Shown: piece by piece, positions 29,812-34,251 of the stretch
How the letters are laid out: every line of letters begins with the position of its first letter
How positions within the stretch are numbered: the stretch's first letter is position 1
DNA from: Mercurialis annua
Taxonomy: Eukaryota > Streptophyta > Magnoliopsida > Malpighiales > Euphorbiaceae
DNA: 64,000 nucleotides
Assembly: GCF_937616625.2 (NCBI RefSeq)
Contig: NC_065571.1
Span: 56,653,651 to 56,717,650, forward strand
Reading direction: 5' to 3'
Notes under the pieces: generated by a model
What the model was told of the DNA's origin: nothing
The model's database searches: none
What the model saw: only the letters and a program-made list of their open reading frames with translations
Position numbers and translations under genes: made by a program

Positions 29812-30188
29812 GAGCAAATTATATTAAAGTCTCTGAGGTATATTATAATTAACAGTTTGATATATCTTGTTTTAAAAGTATACTTAATGGTCCCTCAGTT
29901 TTGACTTCGTTAGCTGAGAGACACTTCCGTTAATTTGAGTGACTAAATCGTTTAACGGAACTAAAACCGATGTACCAAATCGTTTAATAAAATTAAAAGT
30001 GAGAGACCAAAATGTTTACGATATTAAAGATGAGGTATCAAATCATTTGAAAGTAAATGTTAGAAATTAACGGAAGGGTCTAATAGTTGACATAATTGAA
30101 ACTGAGGGACCAGTAAATAGACTTTTGAAACAAGAGGTATCAAACTGTTAATTATAATATAGCTCAGTGACCTTAAAATAATTTGTTT
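29812..30188. mobile_element. Probable Mutator-type MITE
   Basis: Arms of about 130 bp are inverse with moderate divergence, for example TATTATAATTAACAGTTTGA on the left and its complement on the right, and TGGTCCCTCAGTTT in both. TTAATATTT flanks both sides (29803-29811 and 30189-30197), a candidate 9-bp duplication. The three outermost bases of the two ends differ, so the exact edges are less certain. Confidence 0.65.
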
Positions 30189-30441
30189 TTAATATTTTCT
30201 TATTTTTTTTTTAATTTACAATATAATTTTTCAATAAACGTCAATTTTGATCTAATTATAATTATAGCCGATTAGACATATTTATATATAAAAAGAACTT
30301 TTTAATTTTTTTTATGATCAAGTTTATTAAATTTTTAAACTTAAAATATTTACCAAAATTTAATTACATTTCACAAAATTAACTGCAAAATAAAAAATCG
30401 TGAAAGGTTTAATCCTTCTATGGAAAATCAAATAATTTACT

Positions 30442-30492
30442 GGATTGCTATTCGCCGCCCCCTTTTGCTTACCACCGCACAGGCGAAGGACA
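30442..30492 (+). repeat. MULE left terminal inverted repeat
   Basis: Matches the inverse of 34201-34251 with few differences, including a two-base gap close to the tip. Confidence 0.85.
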
Positions 30493-30592
30493 ATTTTACC
30501 CTTTTCACATTTTCAATAGATAACCAATTCATAAAAAAAATACTAAATCCTCTCAACTCATTCAACTTTTCACAAATTCATATTTTACGAAA

Positions 30593-30631
30593 ATGTCGGA
30601 TTTGGAACGAGATAGAAATCGACAACCTCCG
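30593..30631 (+). CDS. Orphan first exon of an inward-facing MULE gene (MSDLERDRNRQPP)
   Basis: An ATG followed by 13 codons ends at a strong donor GTAAGTATT. It lies at nearly the same distance from the left end as the transposase start codon lies from the right end. Upstream, both ends share a CTCTCAAC(T)-CATTC-like block, so each end may carry a promoter. No continuation exon is visible, because the sequence runs into the palindrome array and the 3' end of the transposase. It may be the remnant of a second gene, as in two-gene MuDR elements. Confidence 0.4.
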
Positions 30632-30695
30632 GTAAGTATTTTTTTTTATTAATTTCGGTTTTTTTTTTTAAAAAAACAATTAAAAAAATAGAAAA

Positions 30696-31068
30696 CGGGA
30701 TTTCACGTCCCCTCCGGAGGAGGGAACGCCGGAAACCGGCGTCCCCTCTTCCGGAGGGGACGTGAAATCCCACGTTCCCTCCGGAAGAGGGAACGTGGAT
30801 TTCCCACGTTCCCTCTTCCGGAGGGAACGTGCGGCGTCCCCTCCGGAAGGGGGGACGCCGGAAACGGCGTCCCCCCTTCCGGAGGGGACAGGGGACGCTG
30901 GCGTCCCCTCCGGAAGGGGGGACGCCGTTTTCGGCGTCCCCCCTTCCGGAGGGGACGAACGGCGTCCCCTCCGGAAGAGGGGACGCCGGAAACGGCGTCC
31001 CCCCTTCCGGAGGAGACGTGGGCGTCCGGCGTCCCCTCTTCCGGAGGGGACGCCGGACGCCCGTTCCG
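30696..31068. repeat. Left GC-rich palindrome array of the MULE (TCCGGA cores)
   Basis: Eleven imperfect palindromes have arms of the type GTCCCCTC / GAGGGGAC around a TCCGGA core, with alternating orientation of an extra 1-3 base spacer (CTTCCGGAGG or CCTCCGGAAG). Links such as GCCGGAAACGGC and GTGGATTTCCCAC add further hairpins. The block stands out sharply in AT-rich surroundings. It produces long open frames on both strands that are artefacts of base composition. Confidence 0.9.
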
Positions 31069-31102
31069 TAATTTAATATAATTTATTTTTGCAATGTTCA
31101 TT

Positions 31103-34101
31103 CTAGTTCATTCTAGTCATTCCCCACATCTTCTCGTCACCATATATGTGGTCTGCCACCACGCGAAATCCACAGTTGCCGTCTCCACGCACGTCCACAA
31201 GCTCGTCAACGAATGGTAAAAGGAATCCTGGAATAACCTCCGCATTTTGCAAACCAGCTGCGGGAAATAAAAAAAATATTATTATAAATAACAAGGATAC
31301 TACTACAGTAGACGTACATAACGAATATTAGTGGATGATAATTACCTGACGCGGATGTACGATTTTTCTGAGCTTTGGAAGATTTAGGACGACCAGGTAC
31401 ACGGTCCTTGTACTCATGACGACTCGGATCCCGCTTCGTTGATTTGCTCCCCTTTGGTCGACCTTTGACATTTGTTTTAACTTCTGGTTCCATGTAGCCT
31501 AAGTCTTCGGGGTGAAGTCGCTCTCGAACAATACGAGAAATATCACGCAACACTGAAGGATCCTTAGTCATGACCTCCTCGGCGACCTCGTGAAAATACT
31601 GATGTTCCTCAGTCTGAAAACCAGCAAAATCGGGTTGCGCAGATGTGTCCAACCCATCGCCGAGAATAACAAGTTTCGTCCAAAACGGGTGTATACTGTC
31701 AAGGCTGATCGGGTTACCTACAAATAACACATATTAGCTTTCAATAACAATATTAATATTTTTAATATTAGTATTCAATGAAAGTGGTGCGTGATACCTG
31801 AATCGACCACCGCTCGCAGCTCACATGCACAGGGGATCTGATGTGTTGATCTAACCACACAACCACAGCGATCGTAGACATCGGTACTCAATTCTCGCAT
31901 ACGCCTTAGTTCTTTCGATATTAAATCCAGACAGTAATGCGACACTCTGCATGAGAGCTTGTCAAATGGAAAACCGCGTCGATGTAGCCAATAGTCCGTC
32001 TGGAGTCCTCAAGTGTTTTGCTGCAGTAATTTTAAAACATTTATGTTAATAACAATGACAACATAGTTTGTATAAGTACTAATATTACTCGAGAAGAATG
32101 TTACCGGATATCTATCAGCTGCGACTGTATAACTTTGTCGACCTTCGTCCAGACTGTGTCCAGAGCACCGGTGCTAGAGTTGAGCCACTGCTTAAGCTGA
32201 GCATGTGCGCTCTCGACTCTACATGTGGTGGTGTTTCCAAAATGTAGGACTAAGTCCGTCCAGCAAGATACGAACTTCTCTCTGTGTCCCAGCCAAGTCC
32301 CCTCAATGTACTGTATCAACCCTGGAAAACCTTTAAACCGATCTCTGAAGTGCTCCACAGCTATGTTATATTTATCAAAACTTGGCGCTCTGATAATTTT
32401 CTTCCATGTACTATTCTTGAAAATTTCAGCAAACTCTTGGTTTTTCCCACTAATTCTGTACACTCTATCTTCTACGTCCTTATTTATGTGCCACGTACAT
32501 AGTAGATGAGAAGAACGTGGGAAAACCTCTGACACTGGTCTCATAAGCCCCAATTCTCGATCAGTAAGAATAGCGCTCGGATGAATATGTTCCCCAATCA
32601 AGCACCTGCATTATTGCCCGATGATTTAATAAGTAATTTGAATTTGAATATCATTAAAATATCAAATAACATAATTATAATTAAATACCTCAGTCTCTCC
32701 AATACCCATCTGTAGCTCCCTTCAGTCTCATCCTTCATAATTGCATATGCAATTATGAAGTTCTTGTTGCAAGGAGTCATTCCAATAATCTCCAAAAAAG
32801 GCAGCTTGTACTTGTTCGTCTTGTACGTGGAGTCCATGCCGATGATCCAGTAGTACGTACGAAGTAGTCTCACTGAATCAGGATGAGCCATGAAAATATG
32901 GGTCAACACACCTGTATCCTCCTCAGCAAGAGTCCAGTGTACATAATCATTTTGCTGAGCCATGTGATAAAATTGCCCAACCACATCTCTACCCTCAAAG
33001 CTAGACTTTCTCAAAGTCTCTCTATAGTTGTACACTTGCTTTATTCTAGGGTTGTCAGATGGTACTTTTTCTTTTAAAGCTGCCATGATAGAACACGGCT
33101 TCGCTTGTGCCGCAGTCATATCTCGCACAATTTCTTTGGCCTCGCCACTCAGCCCACTCATCTGACGGTATCCTTCAGGATACACAGCTAGAGCATGGTT
33201 GTGTGTACTCGAAATACCAGGATCTGTAAGTATAAACCATGCAGTCTTTCCTAATTTGACAATAATTTTAAATTTGCACTTACACGCTTTTGTCTTCGTA
33301 TTTTTCCGTACGAAGGAATCAGAATCTGTGAATGAACCTCTGTAACGCTCACCCCGAGCACATCGTAGAAGCTTCTTTTTCCCCTCGTTCTTATGTGACG
33401 AAATGACTAATTCAAATCCAATCTTTATAGCAGTACTCTTAGCCCAAGTAATTGCTTCAACATCACTATCAAACCCATGATCTAGCTTAAACCAATCGCT
33501 GTAATCAATTCCATCACCGCCATAATCTTCTAAATCAACCTGCAAAACATAAATACTTACGTTTAACAAATCGAAATAATATGTAATAAAAAGTCGTAAT
33601 AATATGGAATAAAAAATTACTGTAATTATTAAAAGTTAATTTCAACGTTTTTTTTAGCATTAATTAATTTCCGGCCGCGACGTTTCGGTCGCGGCCGGAA
33701 AAGGGGACGCCGGCGTCCTCTCCAGAGGAGAGGACGCCGGCGCTCCACGTCCCCTCTAGAAGAGGGGACGTAGAGTTGGGCGTCCCCTCCTCTAGAGGGG
33801 ACGCCAAACGCCGGCGTCCCCTCTTCTAGAGAGGACGCGAGCGTCCTCTCTAGAAGAGGGGACGCCCAAAATTGGCGTCCCCTCTAGAGGAGAGGACGTG
33901 GAATTTCACGTCCTCTCCTCTGGAGGGAACGTGAAATCCAATCGTCCCCTCCTCTGGAGGGAACGTGAAATCCAATCGTCCCCCTTGAAAAAATTTAAAA
34001 AAATATTTAAAAAATTTAATTATTACCCCAGAAAAGCCGGAAAAACTTGTTTCCGAATGCCGATACTCGTTTCCCGACGAATTATACTCGTTATCCGTCA
34101 T
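31103..34101 (-). pseudogene. MULE transposase with FAR1-type domain, SWIM finger and OTU-like stub; one frameshift
   Basis: Exons are 34101-34027, 33539-32689, 32605-32105, 32020-31798, 31717-31346 and 31257-31103, with GT-AG junctions. The product would be about 720 residues. A FAR1-like zinc-binding region (CKCKFKI, THNHAL) is followed by the MULE DDE domain: D in IGMDSTYKTN, D in ILTDRELG, E in CRVESAHAQLKQW. A SWIM finger (CGCVVRSTHQIPCACEL) follows. Exon 4 changes frame near 31970-31973, so the SWIM and later parts are not in frame with the DDE domain as read. After a basic AT-hook-like stretch (KGRPKGSKS, PGRPKSSK) the protein ends in LVDVRGDGNCGFRVVADHIY, the start of an OTU cysteine-protease domain, and stops about 10 residues later. 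Confidence 0.88.
33669..33990. repeat. Right GC-rich palindrome array of the MULE (TCTAGA cores)
   Basis: A perfect 13-bp stem with a 6-base loop (33669-33700; arm TTCCGGCCGCGAC) is followed by eight palindromes. They have the same GTCCCCTC/GAGGGGAC arms as the left array, but the core is TCTAGA in five, TCCAGA in the first and TCTGGA in the last two. The array lies within intron 1 of the transposase. Confidence 0.9.
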
Positions 34102-34200
34102 TTTACTCGGCTTTTTACATATTTTTCCGAATGTGTTCGAATAAGTTGAGAGAATCTTGGTTTTTTTTTTTTGCAAATTTTTCTAAAAGGGCAGAAAATG

Positions 34201-34251
34201 TCTTTTGCCTGTGCGGTGGTAAGCAAAAGGGGGCGGCGAATAGCAAAACCC
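34201..34251 (-). repeat. MULE right terminal inverted repeat
   Basis: Inverse of 30442-30492. The shared core is CTATTCGCCGCCCCCTTTTG and continues through CTTACCACCGCACAGGC. Confidence 0.85.

What the first reader, a model, noticed from the sequence alone, without database searches (positions are those of the whole stretch)
30696..33990. Mirror-placed GC palindrome arrays in a MULE that differ mainly in their 6-bp core
The element carries 11 palindromes in the left array and 8 in the right, with the same GTCCCCTC/GAGGGGAC arms, about 255-260 bp from each end. The left core is always TCCGGA. The right core is TCTAGA, TCTGGA or TCCAGA, exactly the products of C-to-T change at the central CpG on one or both strands. 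Other CpGs in the right array are intact, so general methylation decay does not explain it. A site-specific process, selection or array exchange could. Such arrays could be subterminal transposase-binding sites, silencing targets or cruciform-forming sites.
Basis: partly seen in the sequence, partly recalled or inferred. Interest (0 to 1): 0.8.

Follow-up and report, generated by a model that had tools for sequence, protein, structure and literature searches.

The report
Intron palindrome arrays in plant transposons
A recently active plant jumping gene carries two mirror-placed arrays of short GC-rich palindromes, one in the predicted first intron of each of its two genes; two related element families in the same genome have palindromes at the corresponding place but with entirely different sequences, as expected of fast-changing, element-specific recognition sites.

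Summary
In detail: 11 TCCGGA palindromes left, 8 TCTAGA/TCTGGA/TCCAGA palindromes right. It is no accident of this copy. In this genome (Mercurialis annua, inferred) young relatives show TCCGGA at 281 of 283 left and 0 of 164 right TCNNGA cores. A site-specific C-to-T process is not supported: cores are inherited slot by slot, older copies are mixed (15 of 57 right cores TCCGGA), one old left array amplified TCCTGA, and core CpGs show no detectable excess decay (2 of 15 versus 21 of 393 outside; small n). The arrays look like diverged inner parts of ancient long TIRs and lie in predicted first introns of two convergent genes, a plant-mobile-domain gene (left) and the transposase (right); the window copy is internally deleted. 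One copy read of each of two sister MULE families has GC-rich palindromes at transposase intron 1, with unrelated sequences (GGACGTCC; GGGCCATCG). Best explanation: rapidly turning-over, family-specific motif arrays, probably recognised by an element-encoded protein, comparable to VANC target repeats of Arabidopsis VANDAL elements. Anatomy and inheritance are shown; protein recognition is inferred. The left array seems dispensable for amplification: a miniature-copy junction that removes it occurs at 38 sites.

The parts
30440..34251 (.). MULE copy (internally deleted derivative), flanked by 8-bp duplication ATAATTTA
   Evidence: TIRs; ends and flanks; MULE domain; longer copies 4.3-6.2 kb
30445..30505 (+). 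left terminal inverted repeat
   Evidence: I12
30593..30631 (+). predicted exon 1 of left (PMD) gene, MSDLERDRNRQPP, followed by GTAAGT donor
   Evidence: 52 of 55 loci whose exon 1 was matched keep GTAAGT (several loci can come from one element)
30698..31062 (+). left palindrome array, 11 TCCGGA units, in predicted intron 1 of the PMD gene (acceptor and later exons deleted in this copy)
   Evidence: acceptor and exons in full-length copies; Pfam PMD
31103..32104 (-). 3' part of the transposase gene; a terminal DGNC..H segment resembles an OTU-type domain (label recalled, no Pfam match)
32105..32605 (-). transposase exon 3 (MULE domain, second part)
32689..33539 (-). transposase exon 2 (MULE domain, first part)
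33540..34026 (-). predicted transposase intron 1 (487 bp), containing the right array
   Evidence: a sister-family gene model (P0002) is consistent with the same intron
33668..33701 (.). inner hairpin TTTCCGGCCGCGAC..GTCGCGGCCGGAAA, matched at the inner edge of the LEFT array in some old copies
33708..33973 (-). right palindrome array, 8 units (TCCAGA, 5 TCTAGA, 2 TCTGGA)
34027..34101 (-). predicted transposase exon 1, MTDNEYNSSGNEYRHSETSFSGFSG
34186..34246 (-). right terminal inverted repeat
   Evidence: I12

Best explanation
The two arrays are intron-1 palindrome arrays of a recently amplified Mutator-like element (MULE). They mirror each other because they appear to be diverged inner parts of once longer terminal inverted repeats, each holding exon 1, donor site and intron array of one of two convergent genes (PMD gene on the left, transposase on the right). 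The L/R core difference is an inherited array signature: units are gained and lost within each array (6-13 left, 4-9 right cores in closely related copies), which homogenises each array, while the arrays rarely exchange with each other. The half-sites stay nearly constant; the central dinucleotide drifts and fixes separately on each side. The arrays most likely act as family-specific recognition sites for an element-encoded protein (transposase or PMD protein) that keeps the element's promoter-proximal DNA active or marks it for that family's own machinery, as VANC target repeats do in VANDAL elements. Shown: anatomy, signature in young copies, slot inheritance, unit turnover, different palindromes at the corresponding place in sister families. 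Inferred: splicing in vivo, shared TIR origin, protein recognition, anti-silencing role.
For: Core census in 80 arrays (groups assigned by hand from identities). Both arrays between a GT donor and an AG acceptor in full-length copies. PMD E = 1.1e-14 and 3.3e-23, MULE E = 3.4e-24. The outer 31 nt (90%) and, in old copies, the inner hairpins of the two arrays match in inverted orientation. Half-sites hold about 1.7-1.8 bits per position across distinct units, outer spacers about 0.5-0.7. Sister family B: palindromes behind exon 1 of the one copy read (L102, DNA fold z = -8.6); DNA matches to that array at 7 places, 4 of them beside the four transposase hits of 93-97% identity. Sister family C: the one copy read has a palindrome with perfect 77-nt arms (z = -25.5); 35 exact palindrome sites genome-wide (0 control), 19 of them about 340-580 bp upstream of transposase exon-2 hits, at 10 of 14 hits (counted by me from the listings). 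VANC21 localises to introns and terminal non-coding regions, and VANC targets often form tandem repeats that vary between related elements (PMC5735166, passages); TE-encoded PMD proteins have been proposed as counter-silencing (PMC8616336, passages).
Against: No binding, methylation, small-RNA or transcript data. The second gene is PMD, not VANC. Purifying selection on half-sites is not proven: in 20 miniature copies they carry fewer shared variants per site (2 at 112 sites v 29 at 343 outside), but the private:shared contrast is not significant (p = 0.26). Palindromes can grow by hairpin-mediated slippage without function. At least 9 of the 50 loci with a matched transposase exon 1 lack GT at the donor position (listed rows only). 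Only one copy of each sister family was read in letters, and its left end was not seen; 3 of 7 family-B and 16 of 35 family-C array sites are not near a listed transposase hit, and decayed family-B hits (79-90%) had no listed array match.
Confidence: 0.5

Rival explanations
1. [quoted passage not shown] introns inside the ends merely tolerate them, and core differences are drift fixed by unit duplication.
For: Unit number varies strongly among closely related copies. Apparent spacer flips within one palindrome (L045/L059 v L048/L058) and compensating arm changes, e.g. arm position 6 in 108 distinct left units: 16 T-A pairs, 6 one-sided, 2 other. Some copies are broken at or inside arrays (L044, L046; L083; L098).
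Against: Half-sites stay nearly constant across slots whose spacers are unrelated; palindromes recur at the corresponding place in sister families; the 20 miniature copies read each keep at least two cores (15 of them were chosen by array similarity).
Confidence: 0.3
2. Subterminal transposase-binding arrays: the transposase binds the palindromes at both ends to assemble the transposition complex, with L and R variants giving end asymmetry.
For: Palindromic half-sites with a 5-nt spacer fit a dimer; mirror placement about 260-280 bp from each end; right array kept in 20 of 20 miniature copies read (15 chosen by array similarity, 5 not).
Against: A junction that deletes the left array occurs at 38 sites (one such copy read end to end). 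L071 and L005 lack all or nearly all of the right array yet have perfect 8-bp flanking duplications, though loss after insertion is possible.
Confidence: 0.15
3. Site-specific C-to-T change at the right cores (targeted methylation plus deamination).
For: All right-core variants in the window are CpG transition products; the second outer right slot is TCCGGA in L060, L057 and 13 of 15 miniature copies but TCTGGA in the young copies.
Against: Cores are slot-inherited; core CpG change 2 of 15 v 21 of 393 outside (p = 0.21 on 2/15 v 21/383; small n); TCCTGA amplified in an old left array (L085); an old right array amplified TCCGGA (L079).
Confidence: 0.05

Closest known systems
VANDAL MULEs of Arabidopsis with VANC target motif repeats (VANDAL21, VANDAL6)
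   Same: MULE with an extra gene besides the transposase; short motifs amplified in non-coding regions including introns and termini; motif variants differing by one base (C- and T-type); different motifs in different families (passages)
   Different: Here motifs are GC-rich dyads with a 5-nt spacer, not 8-9-base motifs such as YAGTATTAY; second gene is PMD; recognisable TIRs; left and right arrays carry different variants; binding untested
maize MuDR (recalled, not compared here)
   Same: Two convergent genes, one reading inward from each end
   Different: Second gene is PMD; short TIRs; palindrome arrays in predicted first introns
Foldback-type MULEs (Tm1, passages; FARE recalled)
   Same: End-linked repeats of variable number, inverted at the two ends
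   Different: Repeats are palindromes in predicted introns about 260-280 bp from the ends, not tandem motifs making up the TIR

Membership tests
MULE superfamily | MULE transposase domain | tested here: met
   PF10551 E = 3.4e-24
MULE superfamily | terminal inverted repeats and target site duplication of about 8-11 bp (range recalled) | tested here: met
   61-nt TIR, 89%; 8-bp duplication identical in 10 of 13 copies examined (L079 and L029 4 of 8, L075 right end not found)
VANDAL/VANC system | element encodes a VANC protein | tested here: not met
   the left-gene pieces tested match only PF10536 PMD in Pfam; no direct comparison with VANC was run
VANDAL/VANC system | family-specific short motif repeats in non-coding regions incl. 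introns | tested here: met
   three families, three unrelated palindromes at intron 1; families B and C rest on one copy read each plus position matches
VANDAL/VANC system | element-encoded protein binds the motif and removes methylation | not testable with these tools
   needs binding and bisulfite data
Foldback elements | long TIRs built of repeats of variable number | tested here: inconclusive
   arrays share inverted segments and vary in unit number but are subterminal and intronic; TIR itself 61 nt
MuDR-like two-gene MULE | two convergent genes reading inward from the ends | tested here: met
   PMD gene + strand, transposase - strand in full-length copies; gene models predicted, no transcripts
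MuDR-like two-gene MULE | mudrB homolog | not tested
   left gene pieces match PMD; no mudrB sequence was compared

The most novel reading that the evidence does not exclude
First-intron palindrome arrays are a general, fast-evolving recognition code of this plant MULE clade: each family reinvents the half-site while often keeping a 5-nt spacer and the intron-1 position, and its own transposase or PMD protein reads the array to escape silencing; left and right arrays, in introns of different genes, carry different variants so the two genes can be addressed separately.
Probability: 0.25. Interest if true: 0.8.

Novelty: new variant of a known kind. Interest (0 to 1): 0.58.

Why it matters
Sequence-specific anti-silencing by transposons is best known to me from VANC in Arabidopsis. 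Here a MULE lineage with a different accessory gene (PMD, whose transposon role is an open question) shows a similar hallmark, family-specific motif arrays in promoter-proximal introns with rapid turnover. Three families with three different palindromes in one genome give a ready-made cross-binding test: does each family's protein read its own palindrome? It would also give a concrete hypothesis for what transposon-borne PMD proteins do.

Tried and rejected
Core-specific CpG decay: tested on 15 miniature copies, no significant excess. A first cell-level count suggested strong constraint on half-sites (21 of 1480 v 142 of 4539, p = 0.0003; private changes alone p = 0.34), but cells are not independent and repeats can be misaligned; the event-level count on 20 copies weakened it, so selection is left open. 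RNA-type covariation: arms are mostly conserved as sequence, clear compensation only at arm position 6 of left units. Search for a mobile copy lacking the right array: no second copy of L071 among the matches listed (40 of 269 candidates scored, list cut). Polarity by tree: midpoint-rooted, so one or two independent changes at the second outer slot cannot be told apart (44 of 47 right ends usable). Literature: searches (PMC open-access papers only; for the species) listed no title or abstract start on intron-1 palindrome arrays in MULEs; I read passages of PMC5735166, PMC10398659, PMC8616336, PMC7156037 and PMC3169594 only. Scripts that failed or stopped early: import error; error after printing L031 to L059; time limit; one search had a wrong pattern for left exon 1, redone.

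Full report
WHAT IS THERE. The window copy is a 3.8-kb Mutator-like element at 30440-34251 with 61-nt terminal inverted repeats and an 8-bp flanking duplication ATAATTTA. The left array has 11 TCCGGA cores, the right array 8 cores (TCCAGA, five TCTAGA, two TCTGGA). Each unit is a dyad of half-sites GTCCYCTC/GAGRGGAC around a 5-nt spacer, mostly NNGAR; units occur in both orientations, so neighbours form larger palindromes. Left array as DNA and right array as RNA fold far better than 100 shuffles (z = -29.4 and -20.7). The genome is a plant of 451 Mb; the best protein match (P0001, 100% over 68% of the query) is Mercurialis annua LOC126669499 on a contig of nearly the same length.

FAMILY AND ANATOMY. 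Searches listed 40 left ends and 40 internal copies, many 98-100% identical (only the best 40 of 289 and of 225 candidates were scored). Six whole copies of 4.3-6.2 kb (lengths) show two convergent predicted genes. Left gene, + strand: exon 1 MSDLERDRNRQPP, donor GTAAGT, intron containing the left array, acceptor TTGCAG, then exons with plant mobile domain matches. Right gene, - strand: exon 1 MTDNEYNSSGNEYRHSETSFSGFSG (34101-34027), 487-bp intron (34026-33540) containing the right array, exon 2 with the MULE domain. 52 of 55 loci whose left exon 1 was matched keep GTAAGT; the acceptor was found within 900 bp in 39 of 55, the rest including deleted and cut loci. Of 50 loci with a matched transposase exon 1, 27 show the acceptor in reach; at least 9 in the listed rows lack GT at the donor position (GATAAA or AATAAA), by their RRSETSFSGFS sequence probably miniature copies without a working gene. 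The window copy has lost the PMD exons. NCBI's P0001 model starts downstream and omits exon 1; P0002 of a sister family begins MTDKTSKSSEYEYQVPETNFPASPE and continues VQFEV, while the genomic exon 1 (L102) is followed by GT after SPE, consistent with the same intron.

CORES. Groups young/mid/old were assigned by hand. The census counts cores of the form TCNNGA with GC arms; units changed otherwise (such as TCCGAA in L016 and L077, TCCAAA in L032) are outside it. Left young: 27 arrays (3 fused derivatives left out of 30 loci), 281 TCCGGA of 283. Right young: 22 arrays, 0 TCCGGA of 164 (101 TCTAGA, 42 TCTGGA, 21 TCCAGA). Right mid: 1 TCCGGA of 26 (5 arrays). Right old: 15 of 57 (9 arrays). Left mid: 57 of 57 (7 arrays); left old: 53 of 63 (10 arrays), the rest TCCAGA 3, TCCTGA 3, TCAGGA 2, TCTGGA 1, TCTTGA 1 (all; L044, L046, L067 and L075 left out as truncated or fused). 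Order along the right array is largely fixed: TCCAGA innermost, TCTAGA in the middle, TCTGGA outermost (exceptions L047, L058). L060, an old copy, has TCCGGA at four of five right cores and a left array of mostly CCGG cores (L078). L079 has tandemly repeated TCCGGA on the right and two TCCAGA on the left; L085 amplified TCCTGA on the left.

WHY THE ARRAYS MIRROR EACH OTHER. The outermost 31 nt of the two arrays are 90% inverted-identical (I25), and some old copies (L078, L079, L080, L086) carry at the inner edge of the left array a hairpin like the one that closes the right array in the window. I infer diverged long terminal inverted repeats.

TURNOVER AND EXCHANGE. Left arrays carry 6-13 cores (27 arrays), right arrays 4-9 (28 arrays, mid and one old included). 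L009, L029 and L075 join left-type units directly to right-type units: recombination between arrays occurs, and where seen it made deletion derivatives. Several loci are broken at or inside an array (L044, L046, L083, L098).

CpG TEST. In 15 miniature copies, CpG transitions are 21 of 393 outside the array, 12 of 335 in the array outside cores, 2 of 15 in cores; other substitutions 2.8, 3.2 and 3.4%; core v outside p = 0.21, computed on 2/15 v 21/383. No sign of targeted or general CpG decay, though core n is small. CpG observed/expected is 1.11 in the window copy v 0.79 and 0.87 in flanks.

CIS REQUIREMENT. One miniature copy read end to end (L061+L088) fuses left exon 1 to transposase exon 2 and keeps only the right array. 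Its junction occurs at 38 sites in the genome with up to 3 mismatches (0 control; two sites are 232 bp apart and may belong to one element). Twenty copies beside such sites were read in part: 15 chosen by similarity to a right array, 5 chosen by junction alone; each keeps at least two cores. So the left array seems not needed for amplification; necessity of the right array is open. L071 and L005 have lost all or nearly all of the right array but keep perfect duplications.

SISTER FAMILIES. A protein search of the genome with P0002 (68 of 776 candidates scored) listed family B (four long hits of 93-97%, besides decayed ones of 79-90%) and family C (14 hits of 67-71% outside our own family). One copy of each was read. 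L102 (B): behind exon 1, palindromes GGACGTCC-N5-GGACGTCC (z = -8.6). L103 (C): ahead of a TTTTGCAG acceptor, palindromes GGGCCATCG-N5-CGATGGCCC and one with perfect 77-nt arms around 7 nt (z = -25.5); spacers of other lengths also occur in both. DNA matches to the L102 array lie at 7 places; at 4 they begin 38-41 bp from the four 93-97% hits (an edge set by my query), 3 are not near a listed hit. Of 35 exact family-C palindromes (0 control), 19 lie about 340-580 bp upstream of transposase exon-2 hits at 10 of the 14 family-C hits (two distances corrected for hits that begin inside exon 2); the other 16 are not near a listed hit. Same location, unrelated sequence.

MECHANISM. Nearly constant half-sites (about 1.7-1.8 bits) amid divergent spacers (about 0.5-0.7 bits), intron-1 position and family-wise replacement of sequence resemble VANC targets: VANC21 localises to introns, intergenic and terminal non-coding regions, and VANC targets often form tandem repeats that vary between related elements (PMC5735166 passages; PMC10398659 passages). 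A review suggests that transposon PMD proteins may be a counter-silencing strategy (PMC8616336 passages). I therefore favour element-specific recognition arrays; the neutral hairpin-growth rival is serious because selection on half-sites could not be demonstrated.

LIMITS. 

Noticed in passing
G000:C2:17437488 and 17444576 (L010, L019, L035): Two nearly identical copies lie head to tail: a right-end match ends about 15 bp before the left-end match of the next begins, as in a tandem or side-by-side insertion.
   Followed up: no
L044, L046, L083, L098: Four loci are broken at or inside a palindrome array and run into other sequence, suggesting arrays are breakage points.
   Followed up: partly
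proteins P0002, P0010, P0019, P0023, P0065: Proteins similar to this MULE transposase are named 'PKS-NRPS hybrid synthetase' (cheA or CHGG_01239) in public annotation, probably a propagated misannotation.
   Followed up: no
window 29815-30185: A separate 122-nt inverted repeat (83%, 127-nt gap) lies just left of the element, possibly another small element.
   Followed up: no
P0076: A Mercurialis protein carries PF02902 (Ulp1-type peptidase, label recalled) plus a part similar to this transposase, a possible different accessory partner in the same clade.
   Followed up: no
G000:C54:6498749-6498941: A second cluster of family-C palindromes lies about 2.3 kb beyond a family-C transposase hit; it could be a mirror array or a neighbouring small element.
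   Followed up: no
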